The position numbers and the translations under genes are program-made. Under the pieces are notes generated by a model. That model had not been told where the DNA came from, searched no databases, and saw nothing but the letters and a program-made list of their open reading frames with translations. Of a DNA stretch of 29,797 bases, positions 1,124-16,804 are shown piece after piece. Origin of the DNA: a virus; the IMG/VR virus record IMGVR_UViG_3300025896_000136, positions 1 to 29,797 of that record; one strand, given 5' to 3'. Within the stretch, counting starts at the first letter, position 1, and every line of letters begins with the position of its first letter.

Positions 1124-1465
1124 ATGGCCGCAGGATATCAAGAACTTTTTCTGGAACAAGGTACCGATTTTAACACAACTATCACACTGGATGACGTTGA
1201 TGGTATTCCCTACGATTTGACTAATTATATCGCCAAGAGCCAAATAAAAAAATCATATTATTCCAACTCAACCACAGCACAATTTGTAATATCAATTAAT
1301 GACCCAATTAGTGGCACTATAGTTATGCAATTGAGTTCATCAAACACTGCAAATATTTCAGCAGGTAGATATGTTTATGATGTGGTAATTAAAAATTCTT
1401 CAAATAATATAACGAGAGTTTTAGAGGGAATAGTAAATGTTCTACCACAAGTTACGGTATTTTAA
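1124..1465 (+). CDS. Small beta-rich virion protein, baseplate-upper-protein-like
   Basis: This 113-residue protein has an N-terminus (residues 5-45) running LFLEQGTDFNTTITLDD, then G-x-P-Y-D-L-T-x-Y and A-K-S-Q-I-K-K. The pattern resembles the immunoglobulin-like N-terminal fold of phage upper-baseplate proteins that attach receptor-binding proteins. The rest (SAGRYVYDVVIKNSS, RVLEGIVNVLPQVT) reads as further beta strands with no catalytic motif. It is the first gene after a terminator and is followed at 9 bases by another small structural gene. It is probably a virion or baseplate-peripheral protein. The family assignment comes from pattern memory and was not searched. Confidence 0.6.
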   Translation: MAAGYQELFLEQGTDFNTTITLDDVDGIPYDLTNYIAKSQIKKSYYSNSTTAQFVISINDPISGTIVMQLSSSNTANISAGRYVYDVVIKNSSNNITRVLEGIVNVLPQVTVF

Positions 1466-1474
1466 AGGTAAATT

Positions 1475-1708
1475 ATGCCGATAGTAACAGTTTCACCACC
1501 AACAACAATTAAAGTACAAGTAGGCAACCAACGCGGTGGCACTGTACAATCTATTAGTTATGGTAACAAAACACTTAAAGGTTCATCAGATTTAATTATA
1601 GGATCTGCCAATACAGGCGATGTAATATCATATAATGCTAGCACACAATCTTTTAGTGTTGATCCAGTAACAGTTACAATTGCAGATGTGGATGCAGGAT
1701 ACTTTTAA
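1475..1708 (+). CDS. 77 aa structural protein ending in D-A-G-Y-F tag
   Basis: This small protein begins MPIVTVSPPTTIKVQVGNQRGG and contains GSANTGDVISYNAST, a beta-hairpin segment common in marine phage fibre proteins. Its last five residues are DAGYF, the first of four consecutive proteins that end in D-[AG]-G-x-F. The TAA stop shares its last base with the ATG of the next gene, so translation is probably coupled. I do not recognise a defined function. Context and composition point to a minor fibre or baseplate-periphery component. Confidence 0.6.
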   Translation: MPIVTVSPPTTIKVQVGNQRGGTVQSISYGNKTLKGSSDLIIGSANTGDVISYNASTQSFSVDPVTVTIADVDAGYF

Positions 1709-1905
1709 TGGCAAATACAACCATACAAATATTGCGGTCGTATACTACACCTGTACCGAATTCATTGCAAGATGGGGAATTGGCATATTCATTTGTGTCA
1801 AATACTCTTTTTGTTGGTGATAATACCAACAATGTTATTGCTATTGGTGGTCCAAATTACTTAGCAAATATAATAGTCAACTTAGTTGACGGTGGCACGT
1901 TCTAA
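1708..1905 (+). CDS. 65 aa standalone MANT-type module with D-G-G-T-F tag
   Basis: This protein is little more than an N-terminal adhesion module plus the C-terminal tag. Residues 1-45 (MANTTIQILRS, then LQDGELAYSFVSNTLFVGD) match the start of the 631 aa fibre-like gene at 1940 and of the fibre at 4414. The G-E-L-A-Y / L-F-x-G-D pattern resembles the N-terminal domain of phage major tropism determinants and similar fibre heads. It ends VDGGTF. The start overlaps the previous stop by one base (taATG). A standalone copy could be a connector, a decoy or a minimal fibre tip. Its function is unknown. Confidence 0.65.
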   Translation: MANTTIQILRSYTTPVPNSLQDGELAYSFVSNTLFVGDNTNNVIAIGGPNYLANIIVNLVDGGTF

Positions 1906-1908
1906 ATA
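1901..1908 (+). promoter_or_regulatory. Possible late promoter box TCTAAATA
   Basis: TCTAAATA differs from TATAAATA at one position and overlaps the TAA stop of the preceding gene, as the clearer late boxes in this window also do. It lies 32 bases before the ATG at 1940, which has its own purine-rich TAAGGA ribosome site. Confidence 0.45.
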
Positions 1909-1939
1909 TAAAAAACAGTCAAATTAAGGAAAAATAATA

Positions 1940-3835
1940 ATGGCTAATACTTCAATTCTTATCAAACGTTCGACTACAACTGGTCGCCCTTCATCTCTAA
2001 ATGCAGGTGAATTTGCATATTCATACCTGTCAAATACATTATTTCTAGGTACTTCGACTGGAACTGGTGTATTGAATGTTGGTGGCCAATTTTATACTTC
2101 AACTGTTGATGCTGCTACTTCAGCAAACGTTGCAAGTACTTTGGTTAAACGAGATGAGAATTTTGGTTTTTTTGGCGCACTATACGGAAATGCTAATTCT
2201 GCGACGGAACTTTTAAATTCTAGAAACTTTTCTGTATCTGGTGGAGATATCACAGCATCAGCTGTGGGTTTTAACGGCACAGGAAATGTAACATTAAATG
2301 CATCACTAAACAATATCTCAGGTTTAGGTGCAGGTATATATGGCGGAACGACCGCGGTGCCTGTAATCACTGTTGCAGCAAATGGTCGAATTATGGCCAT
2401 CAGCAATACAATGATTTCCACATCATTTAACTTATATGGTAATACAGGTTCGACTACAGTTGTTGGTGGGTCAAACTTCACCATCGATGGTGTAGGTGGT
2501 TCGGGTATTATTACCAACGCCAGTGGTGCAGAATTAACCATCAGTACAGATGATACAATATTACGTTCAAATACATCCGGTGTTGGACCACAAAATATTT
2601 CCACAGATTTAACTGTTGCAGGTAATTTAACAGTTACCGGAACACAAACAATCATCAATACAAAAACAGTAACCACTGATGACTCATTAATCAAATTAGC
2701 AGCAAATAATACTGTTGGTGATGTAGTTGATATTGGTTTTTATGGACAATCAAATATTGGTTCCATTGCATATCACGGTCTTGTCCGTGAAGGTTCCGGT
2801 GGATCATCAGCCGGAAATTTCTATCTATTCAAAGATTTGGCAACAGATCCAACTGGCAACACAGTCAATTATGGAGCATTAACAAAAGCTTCACTGATTG
2901 CTGACCTATCGCTCGCTACAGGGTACCCGACAGCAAATTTAACTGGTGTGCTTTCTGTATCACAAGGTGGTACAGGAACAACAACTTCGACAGGCACAGG
3001 TTCTGTTGTTTTAAGTAATAGCCCAACAATTGGTGGCACTGCTAACTTTGATGCAATCAACACTGCGTCAATTTCTGTTGGTACAACAACCTTCGTCGCC
3101 AACAATGTATTAGGTTCTTTCTCTGCCAACACCGATACATTTGCACAGTTTGTTATTCAAAATGCAAACACTGGTACATCAGCATCTGTTGATTTTATTG
3201 TAAATAATGACCAATCCACCAATGACACATTCTATGGTGATTTTGGTATGAACAGTTCCGGTTTTAGTGGACCTGGAGTTTTGGACACACCAAATGCTGT
3301 TTATCTATATTCAGCAGATTCTGATTTAGTAATTGGCACACATACCGCAAACTCAATACACTTTGTGGTTGATAATGGAACATCAGATGCAATGAACATT
3401 AGTTCATCTGGTGTAGTTACATTAGGTACTGCATTAGGAGTCGGTTCAGGTGGTACTGGTGCATCTTCATTCAGTGCTGGTCGTTTAATTGTTGGCAATG
3501 GTACAGGTGCATTAGTAACAATTGCCAATTCTTCATTTACAGCAACAGGATCTTCTGGTGTGTCAAATAATACAGTCACTTCTGTGTCTGTTGATGCTTA
3601 TGGTAGAACAACAGCAGTAACATATTCTGCAATTGCAGGACTAACTGTTCCACAAGGTGGCACTGGCGCGGCATCGTTTACCACAAAAGGCATTGTTTAC
3701 GGTAATGGCACAGATAGTATGTTAGTAACTGCAGCTGCAGGAACATCTGACCAAACATATTCAAATCAAATACTTACAACTACTAATGCAGGTGTTCCAG
3801 TGTGGTCCACAACATTAGACGGAGGTCAATTCTAA
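1940..3835 (+). CDS. Large tail fibre-like protein with MANT-type head and D-G-G-Q-F tag
   Basis: This 631-residue protein starts MANTSILIKRSTTTGRPSSL, then NAGEFAYSYLSNTLFLGTS, the same N-terminal module as at 1708 and 4414. Its middle carries phage fibre signatures: GVGPQNISTDLTVAGNLTVTG, TDDSLIKLAANN, IAYHGLVREGSGG, and repeated G-G-T-G segments (SVSQGGTGTTT, VGSGGTGASS, VPQGGTGAAS) spaced along the second half. It is almost entirely Gly/Ser/Thr/Asn/Val-rich beta structure, as in trimeric fibre shafts, and no enzyme motif is visible. It ends LDGGQF. It is likely a long virion fibre or baseplate-attached adhesin, followed by a coiled-coil partner with the same terminal tag. Confidence 0.75.
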   Translation: MANTSILIKRSTTTGRPSSLNAGEFAYSYLSNTLFLGTSTGTGVLNVGGQFYTSTVDAATSANVASTLVKRDENFGFFGALYGNANSATELLNSRNFSVSGGDITASAVGFNGTGNVTLNASLNNISGLGAGIYGGTTAVPVITVAANGRIMAISNTMISTSFNLYGNTGSTTVVGGSNFTIDGVGGSGIITNASGAELTISTDDTILRSNTSGVGPQNISTDLTVAGNLTVTGTQTIINTKTVTTDDSLIKLAANNTVGDVVDIGFYGQSNIGSIAYHGLVREGSGGSSAGNFYLFKDLATDPTGNTVNYGALTKASLIADLSLATGYPTANLTGVLSVSQGGTGTTTSTGTGSVVLSNSPTIGGTANFDAINTASISVGTTTFVANNVLGSFSANTDTFAQFVIQNANTGTSASVDFIVNNDQSTNDTFYGDFGMNSSGFSGPGVLDTPNAVYLYSADSDLVIGTHTANSIHFVVDNGTSDAMNISSSGVVTLGTALGVGSGGTGASSFSAGRLIVGNGTGALVTIANSSFTATGSSGVSNNTVTSVSVDAYGRTTAVTYSAIAGLTVPQGGTGAASFTTKGIVYGNGTDSMLVTAAAGTSDQTYSNQILTTTNAGVPVWSTTLDGGQF

Positions 3836-3872
3836 TTTGACTATATAATTTTTTACATGATAGGAGTTTGAG

Positions 3873-4409
3873 ATGGGAAATGAAAAATATTTGAATTATT
3901 ACATAGAAACATTAACGGCCACAATGACCGATTGTATTGTCCGTAATGTTTCTCTGCAAGCTAACGCGAAAGTCACTAACGAAGTTATTGAAAATCAATC
4001 AAAACAGATTGAAGAACTTCATGAACAATTGCAAGAATTGCGTAATAAGAATGATTTAAATGATAACCAAATTATAACAAATTTGCAATCTGTGGTAAAT
4101 CAGCAACAAACTGATATCACAAATTTAAATGCAGAAATTGGTAATTTGCGCAATATTAAAACTGAATACGACAATATAAAAACACAAGCAAATCACGTTG
4201 ACACATTTCGTACTGAATTGATTAAGTCCAGAAAAGAAACAGAAGATTTGAATAATTATTATGAACAAAAAATTAGTGAGCTAAATACTACCATAGAATA
4301 TTTGCAATTAACTCCTGCTAAAAGAAAAAAGGCTGATGAATTTAATAAAAAAGAAGAACCAATTTTAGTTTCATCAGAACTTATAACAAAGGACGGCGGA
4401 AGTTTTTAA
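3873..4409 (+). CDS. Coiled-coil structural protein with D-G-G-S-F tag
   Basis: This 178-residue protein is predominantly helical. Residues ~40-150 are a long coiled coil (QSKQIEELHEQLQELRNK, then repeated leucine/isoleucine heptads such as VNQQQTDITNLNAEIGNL and KISELNTTIEYLQ). A basic patch PAKRKKADEF precedes a short tail ending KDGGSF. The N-terminus (MGNEKYLNYYIETLTATMTD, then RNVSLQANAKV) looks like a short helical docking unit. An AGGAG site sits 7 bases before ATG. It is the only coiled-coil protein among the four tagged genes and could be a stalk or assembly partner of the adjacent fibres. Its role is inferred from context. Confidence 0.65.
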   Translation: MGNEKYLNYYIETLTATMTDCIVRNVSLQANAKVTNEVIENQSKQIEELHEQLQELRNKNDLNDNQIITNLQSVVNQQQTDITNLNAEIGNLRNIKTEYDNIKTQANHVDTFRTELIKSRKETEDLNNYYEQKISELNTTIEYLQLTPAKRKKADEFNKKEEPILVSSELITKDGGSF

Positions 4410-4413
4410 TTAA

Positions 4414-5601
4414 ATGGCAAATACCTCAATACAATTAAAAAAGTCAGGTTTCACAGGCAATACACCAATTGGGTTAAACTATGGTGAGTTGGCGATTAAC
4501 TACGCCGATGGTAAATTGTATTATAAAAATGGTGTTGGTGTCACATCATTTATTACCAACCAAAACACCTTTGCTACTGTTAATTCGAATTCTTCTTTAA
4601 TAATAGCCACAAGTGTATCAGATATACTAACAATTGTTCCTGGAAATAATATTACTATTTCCACAAACACCACAACAAAAACTATTACTGTTGATGGATC
4701 AACTGTTGATAATACTGCAAGAATTAGTGCTCAAGCATCTTTCAATAAAGCCAACAATGCATTATCAAACACAACTGGTGCAATATTTGGTGGTGATTTA
4801 TACATTACAGGAACAGCAAGATTAGTATCACAAGGTGGTGATGAAGGCGGTGAAATATTTTTAGGACAGGCGTTAACTAATAGCACTTTGAGTGGTGGTA
4901 TAACGATTGATTCTTATCAAAACAAAATAAGAATATTTGAACAAGGTGGTACTGCTCGCGGTGCATATATTGATTTAACTCAAGCAGCTGCAGGTGTTGG
5001 TACAAATTTATTGAGTCCTGGTACATCAACAGACCAATACGCAAGAGATACGGCAAATACAGCAACAACCAATGCTGCAACAGCAGATTCTAAAGCAGTA
5101 ACAGCTGGTTCTTATGCCAATTCAGCATTCTTAAAAGCAAACACAGCAACTACTAATGCTGATGGTGCTTCTTTGTATGCCAATTCAGCATTCTTAAAAG
5201 CAAATACAGCAGATTCTAAAGCAGTAACAGCTGGTTCCTATGCTAACTCTGCTTACACTCAAGCAAACACAGCAACAACCAATGCTGCAACAGCAGATTC
5301 TAAAGCAGTAACAGCTGGTTCCTATGCTAACTCTGCTTACACTCAAGCAAACTCTGCTTACACTCAAGCAAATGCAGCTTATAACAAAGCAAATTCAACC
5401 ACCGGTTTAACATATACAGCAAATACCACACCACCAAGTTCACCGAATAAAGGAGATCAGTGGTACAACACAAACACGGATATTTTATATGAATATATAA
5501 CGGATGGATCATCCAATGTATGGATAGACATACAATCACCAATCATATCTTCAGATCCATCACCGAACATATTATCTCCATTTTTGTTAGCTGGAATGTA
5601 A
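4414..5601 (+). CDS. Tail fibre: MANT-type head, 17-heptad alanine stalk, cap domain
   Basis: This 395-residue fibre protein opens with the MANT-type module (MANTSIQLKKSGF, GLNYGELAINYADGKLYYKNG). A beta region (VDNTARISAQASFNKANNALS, GDLYITGTARLVSQGGDEGGEIFLGQ) follows. Then come 17 uninterrupted heptads (bases 5053-5409) of type A-x-x-A-x-x-x, suited to a trimeric alanine zipper. The C-terminus is a compact cap, TYTANTTPPSSPNKGDQWY...DILYEYITDGSSNVW, which is shared almost word for word with the gene at 7892 and more distantly with the fibre at 10575. It starts 4 bases after the preceding stop. It lacks an S74 chaperone, unlike the first fibre, so trimerisation must be intrinsic or use another partner. 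Confidence 0.75.
   Translation: MANTSIQLKKSGFTGNTPIGLNYGELAINYADGKLYYKNGVGVTSFITNQNTFATVNSNSSLIIATSVSDILTIVPGNNITISTNTTTKTITVDGSTVDNTARISAQASFNKANNALSNTTGAIFGGDLYITGTARLVSQGGDEGGEIFLGQALTNSTLSGGITIDSYQNKIRIFEQGGTARGAYIDLTQAAAGVGTNLLSPGTSTDQYARDTANTATTNAATADSKAVTAGSYANSAFLKANTATTNADGASLYANSAFLKANTADSKAVTAGSYANSAYTQANTATTNAATADSKAVTAGSYANSAYTQANSAYTQANAAYNKANSTTGLTYTANTTPPSSPNKGDQWYNTNTDILYEYITDGSSNVWIDIQSPIISSDPSPNILSPFLLAGM
5053..5409 (+). repeat. 17 x 21 bp alanine-heptad repeat tract
   Basis: This in-frame tract has 21 bp units encoding A-x-x-A-x-x-x words in the order ANTATTN, AATADSK, AVTAGSY, ANSAFLK, ANTATTN, ADGASLY, ANSAFLK, ANTADSK, AVTAGSY, ANSAYTQ, ANTATTN, AATADSK, AVTAGSY, ANSAYTQ, ANSAYTQ, ANAAYNK, ANSTTGL. 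Within it, 5206-5268 and 5290-5352 are identical 63 bp copies exactly 84 bp apart (four units). Bases 5095-5141 are identical to 74-120 in the first fibre gene. Confidence 0.85.
5341..5426 (+). repeat. 86 bp perfect direct repeat, copy 1 (copy 2 at 8018-8103)
   Basis: This 86-base stretch is identical, base for base, to 8018-8103 in another fibre gene 2.7 kb downstream. It covers the last heptads of the stalk and the entry to the cap domain. Both copies are in the same coding frame and orientation, so exchange between them would fuse the two genes in frame. Confidence 0.9.
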
Positions 5602-9136: not shown

Positions 9137-9328
9137 ATGTCAAACGAATATGTAAAAAGTAAATTAGGTGATGGTGCATGCATTTTTGAAGGCACAGTAG
9201 ATGAATTGGAACAATTCATGCAATCTTGCGGAATAAGTTTCAGTTATATGGTTGCTAATTATGGAACAGTATATTTTGTTACTCAAGGTGAATTGCCAGT
9301 AGATGCAAGAATTAGGGAGATGACATAA
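9137..9328 (+). CDS. 63 aa hypothetical protein
   Basis: This small protein begins MSNEYVKSKLGDGACIFEGT and continues DELEQFMQSCGISFSYMV, ending ELPVDARIREMT. It contains two cysteines and mixes helix and strand, unlike the Thr/Ser/Gly-rich structural proteins around it. It starts one base after the previous stop and shares one base with the next start (taATG), so it is translated as part of a tight four-gene set (8638-10565). I do not recognise a family. A fibre-assembly accessory is possible but unproven. Confidence 0.5.
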   Translation: MSNEYVKSKLGDGACIFEGTVDELEQFMQSCGISFSYMVANYGTVYFVTQGELPVDARIREMT

Positions 9329-10407
9329 TGTATGCAAAATTGATTGTTGGTGGAACAGTATATACACATTTCGCATATATGCGGGATATTGTTAAATTGG
9401 TGACAAGTGAAACACCAACTTTAAATGATGTTTCTGCATTTAGCAATACATCATCTGTATTGGTTGATGCAACTCCAGCTGGATGGACACTGGTGGGATC
9501 GACAAATGTAAATGATAGAATAACTATTCCGCCGAGCAGAACAACTTTGCCGGCAGTAGCATCAAATACCAATTTGATAATTTCTGCACCATGTATTGAT
9601 GAAGTTTTACCTTCAAAATATGCAGTATTCAGCACTGCTGGTGGAACATTAAACAGTATTGCGTTTACTTTGGCTGCGGCGTCCAATGCAACCAACGCAG
9701 GTGTAACCACAAACGAAAGCACACGGCTTGTAGATAATGCCAATCCATACACAAGTCACAATAGACATCTATATGCAAATACTGGTTCTGTTTTTCATGT
9801 ATTTTCCAATCCAAGACACATTACTGTAGTTGTTGAAAATAAAGGATTGATGGGTGTTTGGGAAGCTTCAGCGACAGATTTAAATTATTTTTACAATACT
9901 GCACCGCAAATTAATTACAGTCATCCATATACAACAGATACACAAAAGTTATATTATTCTACCGGTATTATAGCAGGACAACCGCTGAGCACAGGAACGA
10001 TATCGATTGCAACAGGAACATCTGTTAGTGGAAATCATTCACATTCAGTCGTTAAGATAACAGATCCAAATACGGCTAATGTATATTCTTCTATAGACTT
10101 AACTGATAGTTATTATGATGGCACAAATGCTCCATACCCAAGAAGAAATATAGGTAGTATGCTTATTAATGTGTCAAATAAATTTAATAATACACTTAAT
10201 CAATCTGGACAATTACGATATCTTATTTCTCCAATATATTTTTCTGTAGATCAATATGGTTATGCTACACAATTTGTGTCTGGTATTTCTCCAATATATT
10301 TTGCGAAGAATGGAATTGGACTGAGTGGTGATACGGTAACGATTAATAATAATCAATACTATTATATTGATTGTGGCAATTATGGACTAATGGTTGCGGG
10401 GTCATAA
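9328..10407 (+). CDS. 359 aa putative virion structural protein
   Basis: This protein begins MYAKLIVGGTVYTHFAYMRDIVKLVTSE. A long Thr/Ser/Asn-rich body follows, containing VLVDATPAGWTLVGSTN, HNRHLYANTGSVFHVFSNPRH, HSHSVVKITDPN, and a repeated S-P-I-Y-F element (ISPIYFSVDQYG at ~297, ISPIYFAKNGIG at ~321). It ends YYIDCGNYGLMVAGS. Composition fits an extended beta virion protein. The opening W-T-L-V-G-S segment resembles the ends of phage structural proteins that wrap DNA-independent tail parts. No enzyme motif is seen, and its exact role is not identified. Confidence 0.55.
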   Translation: MYAKLIVGGTVYTHFAYMRDIVKLVTSETPTLNDVSAFSNTSSVLVDATPAGWTLVGSTNVNDRITIPPSRTTLPAVASNTNLIISAPCIDEVLPSKYAVFSTAGGTLNSIAFTLAAASNATNAGVTTNESTRLVDNANPYTSHNRHLYANTGSVFHVFSNPRHITVVVENKGLMGVWEASATDLNYFYNTAPQINYSHPYTTDTQKLYYSTGIIAGQPLSTGTISIATGTSVSGNHSHSVVKITDPNTANVYSSIDLTDSYYDGTNAPYPRRNIGSMLINVSNKFNNTLNQSGQLRYLISPIYFSVDQYGYATQFVSGISPIYFAKNGIGLSGDTVTINNNQYYYIDCGNYGLMVAGS

Positions 10408-16609: not shown

Positions 16610-16804
16610 ATGACCAAACAAGTAATTAGTATTGGAACAAAAGCCAATGACGGTTCAGGTGATACTATTCGAGCAGCATTTACAAAAACAAATAATAATT
16701 TTACGGAATTATATTCGACCACAATTTCACTAGACACATTAAAAGGTGTTGTTGCAAATTCAACTAGTTTTACGGATTTTCAAACAAAAATTAGTGCATT
16801 ATAA
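16610..16804 (+). CDS. 64 aa small structural module protein
   Basis: It begins MTKQVISIGTKANDGSGDTI followed by RAAFTKTNNNFTELYSTTIS. The I-G-T-x-A-N-D-G-x-G-D-x-x-R-x-A-F-x-K-x-N-N-N-F-T-E-L-Y core is a widespread segment at the start of aquatic phage structural proteins. Here it is essentially the whole protein, with a short hydrophobic tail (TLKGVVANSTSFTDFQTKIS). It sits between gp15 and the terminase small subunit, an unusual place for a fibre-type module. It may be a standalone virion peptide or a remnant of a longer fibre gene. Confidence 0.62.
   Translation: MTKQVISIGTKANDGSGDTIRAAFTKTNNNFTELYSTTISLDTLKGVVANSTSFTDFQTKISAL

What the first reader, a model, noticed from the sequence alone, without database searches (positions are those of the whole stretch)
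1691..4406. Four consecutive proteins share a C-terminal D-[AG]-G-x-F tag
The genes at 1475, 1708, 1940 and 3873 end DAGYF, DGGTF, DGGQF and DGGSF (bases 1691-1705, 1888-1902, 3818-3832, 4392-4406). The proteins are 77, 65, 631 and 178 residues, one of them a coiled coil, so the rest of each sequence is unrelated or only partly related. The codons differ at nearly every position (gat gca gga tac ttt / gac ggt ggc acg ttc / gac gga ggt caa ttc / gac ggc gga agt ttt), so conservation is at the peptide level. I infer a docking or sorting peptide, perhaps recognised by a common baseplate or neck partner. A small-protein/fibre attachment system using a shared C-terminal tag would be new as far as I can tell, but I could not search for it.
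Basis: partly seen in the sequence, partly recalled or inferred. Interest (0 to 1): 0.75.

Follow-up and report, generated by a model that had tools for sequence, protein, structure and literature searches.

The report
Fibre-joining peptide at protein ends
Neighbouring tail genes of this T4-like virus end in the same short peptide, and the gene that follows almost always begins with the same cap domain; T4's long tail fibre has this pair where gp36 plugs into gp37, so the peptide is most likely a reusable plug for joining tail-fibre pieces end to end.

Summary
The four tags are the only C-terminal matches in the window. Among 102 related loci, 163 of 1219 distinct proteins end D[AG]GxF, against about 0.06 expected. 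The conservation is at peptide level.

The proposed partner (baseplate or neck) is not supported. The gene directly downstream of a tag usually begins with a ~48-residue cap domain (MANTxIxxKRS..P..L..GELA..). In 151 of 168 cases the gene upstream of such a domain carries a tag. Upstream of the related Mtd_N (RRG) type in the same loci it was 0 of 29. In 17 isolate genomes other than T4, tags and free K/S-type cap domains occur in equal numbers. A scan of IMG/VR for the DNA of DGGTF-stop alone again finds mostly fibre genes followed by a cap domain.

The cap domain is homologous to the N-terminus of T4 gp37. Its known partner, the C-terminus of gp36, ends DFGYY, the same D-x-G-x-[FY] pattern.

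Best explanation: a generalised gp36–gp37 joint. The C-terminal peptide of one trimeric fibre segment docks on the N-terminal cap of the next, making a multi-segment fibre. Contact geometry is inferred, not shown. Why the coiled-coil protein also carries a tag is open.

The parts
1124..1465 (+). LtfC-like beta-sandwich protein (113 aa), directly upstream of the first tagged gene
   Evidence: PHROG 3304 'L-shaped tail fiber protein assembly' E 4e-24 and PHROG 1084; weak Pfam LtfC and PDB 8hqz_Q; the following gene carries the tag or a near variant in 44/45 relatives
1475..1708 (+). Family 1 donor: 77-aa protein ending IADVDAGYF
   Evidence: ORF; very divergent family, 73-207 aa in relatives, tag kept
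1691..1705 (+). Tag 1, DAGYF (donor peptide)
   Evidence: -4 = Ala goes with the ILRS-type acceptor that follows
1708..1851 (+). Acceptor (cap) domain 1, N-terminus of the 65-aa protein (MANTTIQILRSY...GELAYSF...LFVGD...IAIGG)
   Evidence: profile hits (E 1e-22; T4 gp37 profile alone E 3e-6); AlphaFold2 pLDDT about 84-90 over residues 11-50
1708..1905 (+). Family 2: 65-aa protein = cap domain plus short tail plus tag (DGGTF)
   Evidence: alignment A1 of 20 relatives
1888..1902 (+). Tag 2, DGGTF
   Evidence: tail region pLDDT about 61, no strand
1940..2086 (+). Acceptor (cap) domain 2, N-terminus of the 631-aa fibre protein (MANTSILIKRS...)
   Evidence: A5 E 1e-20
1940..3835 (+). Family 3: 631-aa fibre protein, cap domain at N-terminus and tag at C-terminus (VPVWSTTLDGGQF)
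   Evidence: PHROG 15769; relatives
3818..3832 (+). Tag 3, DGGQF
3873..4409 (+). Family 4: 178-aa coiled-coil protein with variable tail ending KDGGSF
   Evidence: 40/40 relatives tagged
4392..4406 (+). Tag 4, DGGSF
4414..4557 (+). Acceptor (cap) domain 3, N-terminus of the 395-aa fibre protein (MANTSIQLKKSG...)
   Evidence: A5 E 8e-22; T4 gp37 profile E 9e-5
4414..5601 (+). Untagged fibre protein (395 aa): presumed terminal segment of the chain
   Evidence: ends SPFLLAGM, no tag

Best explanation
The tag (consensus hydrophobic-D-x-G-x-[FY], with at most one extra residue) is the donor half of an end-to-end fibre joint. The ~48-residue N-terminal cap domain of the next protein is the acceptor half. 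A trimeric segment offers three C-terminal peptides that dock on the trimeric cap of the following segment, as gp36 (C-terminal DFGYY) joins gp37 (N-terminal MATLKQIQFKRS...) in the T4 long tail fibre. The window encodes a chain of such parts: small protein 1475 -> 65-aa adaptor 1708 -> 631-aa fibre 1940 -> (coiled coil 3873) -> terminal fibre 4414, probably attached near the LtfC-like protein 1124. Shown here: the tags, the cap domains, their genomic linkage, homology of the cap to gp37 and the matching gp36 end. Known from the literature: gp36 C-terminus binds gp37 N-terminus. Inferred: that the last five residues make the contact, the trimeric geometry, the order of the chain and the place on the virion.
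For: (1) The gene upstream of a K/S-type cap domain ends in the tag in 151/168 deduplicated cases versus 0/29 for Mtd_N (RRG)-type domains in the same loci, P 4e-23. (2) Tag-first scan of IMG/VR with DNA for DGGTF-stop, no homology used: 78 of 81 hits end ORFs of at least 55 aa, 54 of them with a cap domain within 3 kb downstream; over all genes in those loci 74/119 tagged versus 30/560 untagged are followed by a cap domain within 150 nt, P 9e-43. (3) In 17 isolates the number of tags equals the number of free K/S cap domains: 0/0, 1/1 or 2/2 in every case. (4) Fusions: in DSL-LC03 family 1 runs straight into a cap domain (..WVVTNEIDG-QVNPTIKIKRTT..) where P-SSM2 has two adjacent genes in the same frame (..LDINGGNF* MASIIRIKRSS..); the Aeh1 gp36-gp37-like fusion has no detectable cap domain, and the HTVC008M family 1-fibre fusion has neither tag nor K/S cap at the junction. 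(5) Cap domain = T4 gp37 N-terminus, hhalign probability 98.2, E 4e-14; gp36 ends DFGYY in T-evens 18/18 (one with an extra Ser), DYGTY in Ac42, DFGTY in JD18, DFGAY in phiR1-RT. (6) Within family 1, residue -4 follows the acceptor subtype: Ala with ILRS 29/36, not Ala with other subtypes 21/23, P 4e-8. (7) gp36 C-terminus binds gp37 N-terminus (PMC9603124, PMC3004832).
Against: No structure of the contact: the AlphaFold2 job on a natural read-through of donor plus acceptor gave pLDDT 41 and says nothing. The window has four tags but three cap domains, so the coiled coil either accepts a tag in its own way or does something else. In seven isolates a cap-domain fibre lies far from the tagged gene, so gene adjacency is not required. 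Similar tags occur on a few proteins that are not obviously fibre parts (a membrane protein between gp43 and uvsX; small proteins near an AAA ATPase). In tag-first loci a few RRG-type domains also follow a tag, so the 0/29 control is not universal. Counts are not corrected for phylogeny.
Confidence: 0.8

Rival explanations
1. Common-hub docking: all tags bind one shared partner, for example the LtfC-like protein, a neck protein or the baseplate, and the cap domains only happen to be neighbours.
For: The LtfC-like gene lies directly upstream of the cassette in nearly all relatives and is of a tail-fibre attachment family. The core of the tag is the same in unrelated proteins.
Against: HTVC008M has the LtfC-like protein and head-closure/baseplate genes but no tag. 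T4 gp36 has the tag pattern, and its known partner is gp37. Tag numbers equal cap-domain numbers. Residue -2 is typical of each family and not shared within a genome (4% identical, shuffled 9%). Residue -4 follows the next cap domain. None of this excludes a weak second site.
Confidence: 0.1
2. The tag is just the last strand or turn of an ordinary fibre fold, conserved for folding of each protein.
For: In families 1-3 the residue before the tag is usually hydrophobic, and the VPVW..xLDGGxF ending of family 3 is well conserved.
Against: The same peptide ends a variable tail in the coiled-coil family and a low-confidence coil in the 65-aa protein. Donor folds are unrelated. Presence depends on the next gene, not on the protein's own fold.
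Confidence: 0.05
3. A nucleic-acid signal (Shine-Dalgarno or translational coupling for the next gene) that happens to encode DGGxF.
For: GGNGG can resemble a ribosome-binding site, and the next ATG often follows at once.
Against: All Gly codons, both Asp and both Phe codons are used. Spacing to the next ATG varies from overlap to over 100 nt. Gene 3873 has its own GGAG just upstream, far from tag 3. D(-5) and F/Y(-1) are not explained.
Confidence: 0.02
4. An assembly or sorting tag recognised by a chaperone or membrane protein before assembly, with the cap domain of the next segment competing for it later; the tagged coiled coil would be such a chaperone-like placeholder.
For: Explains the extra tag on the coiled coil and tags on a membrane protein in three genomes. 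The coiled coil is untagged in P-HM1, P-SSM2 and L041 without loss of the other tags.
Against: No chaperone candidate that tracks the tags was found. For T4 the review lists gp12, gp34 and gp37, not gp36, as clients of the fibre chaperones.
Confidence: 0.15

Closest known systems
T4 long tail fibre gp36-gp37 joint (Straboviridae)
   Same: Donor ends D-F-G-Y-Y and the gene is directly followed by gp37, whose N-terminal domain is homologous to the window's cap domains. The C-to-N contact of two trimers is established (PMC9603124).
   Different: The T4 long tail fibre has one such joint; the window has four tags and three caps in a row. Donor bodies do not resemble gp36 (IWHQGNFPLNP type). Residue -4 is Gly/Ala instead of Phe/Tyr. 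The genes lie between the baseplate and neck genes, not in a gene 34-38 cluster.
Cyanophage T4-GC 113/114 (P-SSM2) and 508/509 (P-HM1) proteins
   Same: Same order (small donor, cap-domain fibre with tag), directly before the coiled coil and gp13 in P-SSM2, and after the LtfC-like gene in P-HM1.
   Different: Annotated as hypothetical (508 as YadA domain). No 65-aa adaptor. The coiled coil is present but untagged.
Mtd_N (PF18454), N-terminal domain of the major tropism determinant, and phage hyaluronidase N-terminal caps
   Same: Similar length and position at the N-terminus of fibres; Foldseek hits to Mtd, phage hyaluronidases and the collagen XVIII trimerisation domain, all weak.
   Different: The RRG-type domains in these genomes match Mtd_N (E 2e-13) while the gp37 and window domains do not match Pfam. 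In the cassette loci no RRG-type domain follows a tag.
LtfC / L-shaped tail fibre assembly (PDB 8hqz)
   Same: Gene 1124 belongs to PHROG 3304/1084.
   Different: It carries no tag and is present also where there is no tag (HTVC008M).

Membership tests
gp36-gp37-type fibre joint | Donor C-terminus D-x-G-x-[FY] | tested here: met
   All four window tags; T4 and relatives DFGYY, DYGTY, DFGTY, DFGAY
gp36-gp37-type fibre joint | Acceptor N-terminal domain homologous to that of gp37 | tested here: met
   hhalign Prob 98.2, E 4e-14; T4-type profile alone hits window genes 1708 and 4414 at E 3e-6 and 9e-5
gp36-gp37-type fibre joint | Donor gene directly upstream of acceptor gene | tested here: met
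   1475-1708, 1708-1940 and 3873-4414; 151/168 in relatives
gp36-gp37-type fibre joint | Physical contact of donor C-terminus with acceptor N-terminus | not testable with these tools
   Known for T4; no complex could be predicted here
gp36-gp37-type fibre joint | Donor and acceptor are trimers | not tested
   T4 gp36 and gp37 are trimers (PMC3004832); only weak fold similarity of the cap to trimerisation domains
gp36 itself | gp36 body (IWHQGNFPLNP... N-terminal region) | tested here: not met
   By reading, none of the four window donors has the gp36 N-terminal sequence, and none matches a gp36 family in PHROGs
Mtd_N (PF18454) | Match to the Pfam model above its cut-off | tested here: not met
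   No match for window genes 1708, 1940, 4414; RRG-type domain matches at E 2e-13
LtfC family (gene 1124) | Profile match | tested here: met
   PHROG 3304 E 4e-24; Pfam LtfC below cut-off

The most novel reading that the evidence does not exclude
D-x-G-x-[FY] at the C-terminus is a general plug for modular assembly of phage tail fibres, shared by T4 and its relatives, marine T4-like viruses and, judging from the tag-first scan, other phage types. Residue -4 (Ala, Gly or Phe/Tyr) and the cap subtype (ILRS, KRS/KKS, gp37 type) form a pairing code that fixes which segment joins which, so fibre chains can be lengthened by inserting tag-plus-cap adaptors such as the 65-aa protein.
Probability: 0.55. 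Interest if true: 0.8.

Novelty: new variant of a known kind. Interest (0 to 1): 0.7.

Why it matters
No atomic structure of a whole T4 long tail fibre was available according to a 2022 review (PMC9603124), and how trimeric fibre segments find their correct neighbour is open. A five-residue end peptide paired with a ~48-residue cap domain gives a concrete, testable rule. It lets fibre order be read from sequence in uncultured marine phages, where such proteins are mostly 'hypothetical', and it could explain how fibre chains gain or lose segments. I found no description of the peptide in the open-access library searched; subscription papers were not searchable.

Tried and rejected
Chance: rejected. 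Nucleotide-level signal: rejected by codon variation. Common hub partner: lowered by HTVC008M, by T4 and by family-specific -2 residues. Direct DNA or protein similarity of the cassette in INPHARED phages found nothing; the link to isolates came through the LtfC-like neighbour and the cap profile. A scan for family 1 relatives found none, the family being too divergent for short seeds. PDB sequence search with families 2 and 3 found nothing. Foldseek of the 65-aa model gave only E above 0.2. AlphaFold2 on the natural read-through of family 1 and family 2 in L053 (TAA read as Gly) failed, pLDDT 41. A first idea that Mtd_N-type domains are acceptors was dropped for the cassette loci (0/29), though a few RRG-type domains follow tags in other phages. 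Pattern hits that are not real tags were set aside: S-PM2 (in-frame stop inside the match), P-SSM4 55-aa ORF, T4 26832, DSL-LC03 25444 and P-HM1 147428 (antisense inside PHM1_170).
Full report
Setting. The window is a 29.8-kb virus record (IMG/VR type) from a T4-like myovirus: after a fibre region come, by position and sequence, the neck genes, terminase, sheath, tube, portal, protease, scaffold and capsid genes. The capsid protein is 66% identical to that of Methylophilales phage Melnitz and 62-65% to Pelagibacter phages. The finding lies in the region where T4 has genes 9-12 and wac, between the baseplate and neck genes.

Observation. The four C-terminal peptides are exactly as described and are the only C-terminal matches in the window. 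In 102 loci fetched with proteins 1708, 3873 and 1940 as queries, 163 of 1219 distinct proteins end in D[AG]GxF, while the motif occurs internally only 18 times in 380,872 residues apart from one-residue extensions. In sets defined without the tag, essentially all coiled coils, short MANT proteins and genes following the LtfC-like gene carry the tag or a near variant. Codons vary freely. Positions -1, -3 and -5 are invariant or nearly so while the residues before the tag are variable. In 20 whole records searched with a degenerate DNA pattern, real matches lie almost only in this cassette; tags on a membrane protein between DNA polymerase and UvsX in three genomes are the main exception.

Anatomy. 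The cassette is conserved: S74-type long fibre; LtfC-like protein; family 1 (73-207 aa, DAG[FY]F); family 2 (61-88 aa, DGGxF); family 3 (~500-1000 aa fibre, LDGG[QT]F); family 4 (coiled coil, KDGG[ST]F); then an untagged fibre. Families 2, 3 and the untagged fibre begin with the same ~48-residue domain. AlphaFold2 folds that domain in family 2 (pLDDT 84-90) and leaves the tag as a low-confidence coil.

From tag to partner. Isolates were reached through the LtfC-like gene. P-HM1, P-SSM2, Mosig, Melnitz, S-T4, S-CAM7, DSL-LC03, S-SRM01, S-SKS1 and ACG-2014f have one or two tags; HTVC008M, Syn9, S-RIM2, S-SSM7, S-PM2, P-SSM4 and DLP6 have none that stand up. A profile of the N-terminal domain shows that the number of free domains of the K/S type equals the number of tags in each of these 17 genomes. 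In DSL-LC03 family 1 is fused to a cap domain at the very place where its tag would be, and keeps one tag at the far end; P-SSM2 shows the unfused, in-frame state. Fused proteins in Aeh1 and HTVC008M have no detectable K/S cap at the junction.

Tests of linkage. Over all fetched loci, the gene upstream of a K/S-type cap domain ends in a tag in 151 of 168 deduplicated cases; the exceptions are mainly an untagged coiled coil in between, isolated fibres elsewhere in the genome, and ORF-call slips. Upstream of RRG-type (Mtd_N) domains the figure is 0 of 29. A tag-first scan of IMG/VR with the DNA pattern for DGGTF-stop returned 80 loci; 78 of 81 hits end ORFs of at least 55 aa, mostly fibre-like proteins, and tagged genes are followed by a cap domain within 150 nt far more often than untagged genes of the same loci (74/119 versus 30/560). 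Within family 1 the residue at -4 goes with the subtype of the following cap domain.

Link to T4. The cap profile, built without T4, hits T4 once: the N-terminus of gp37. Profile-profile comparison gives 98.2% probability, E 4e-14. The upstream gene, gp36, ends VQDFGYY; 18 of 18 T-even relatives end DFGYY, one with an extra Ser, and Ac42, JD18 and phiR1-RT end DYGTY, DFGTY and DFGAY. Reviews state that trimeric gp36 binds the N-terminal region of gp37 and that the C-terminal end of gp36 does so (PMC3004832; PMC9603124). I take the D-x-G-x-[FY] peptide to be the donor element of this joint. That step is inference; I found no residue-level description.

Mechanism. Each tagged protein is a donor whose three C-terminal peptides dock on the cap of the next segment. 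The 65-aa protein, a cap plus a tag and little else, is an adaptor that adds a joint. The untagged 4414 protein would be the distal segment. In P-HM1, P-SSM2 and L041 the coiled coil is present but untagged, which favours a role that can be dropped.

Limits. No complex was modelled: the one attempt failed. Counts are not corrected for phylogeny. Some tags sit on proteins with no known link to fibres. Family names rest on profiles, not on experiments.

Verdict. It works like, and by homology of the acceptor and identity of the donor pattern probably is, a multiplied form of the T4 gp36-gp37 joint.

Noticed in passing
L145:4399-5427 (-), L122, L129; homologues L155, L158, L163-L167: A 307-441 aa membrane protein (two N-terminal hydrophobic segments, a coiled coil, one more segment, cytosolic tail), between DNA polymerase gp43 and UvsX in L145, ends DGGKF/DGGTF in three cassette-bearing genomes and ASGKF in a fourth; distant relatives in Mosig, Salicola SCTP-2, Stenotrophomonas and Flavobacterium phages lack the tag. 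No PHROG match.
   Followed up: partly
L265, L273, L318: Small (72-82 aa) proteins with M.QLNTLPIE-like starts ending MDGGTF or FDGGTF, upstream of a conserved ~130-aa protein and, in L265 and L273, an AAA ATPase; not obviously fibre parts. Possibly a second use of the peptide or a convergent strand ending.
   Followed up: no
window 9328-10407: The 359-aa protein ends YYYIDCGNYGLMVAGS: a DCGNY, close to the tag pattern, seven residues before its C-terminus.
   Followed up: no
L129 protein (441 aa), L152-L154 proteins: C-terminal parts of some of the membrane proteins resemble tail-fibre modules (S74-like 'VAQEIASVIPEAV', and 'KGDMFVRTDYLPTRLYKYNGNKWI').
   Followed up: no
L252, L271, L290, L297, L298, L303, L307, L311: A further fibre family 'MANTIRIKRRASG..GAPSSLENAEL' ending DGGTF; in L298, L303 and L286 the following gene starts 'LxKGQIALDPxNDLLYYVN', which looks like a cap domain without its first strand.
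   Followed up: partly
window 16610-16804: A 64-aa ORF (MTKQVISIGTKANDGSGDTIRAAFTKTNNNFTELY...) that looks like a stand-alone fibre or structural module between the neck and terminase genes.
   Followed up: no
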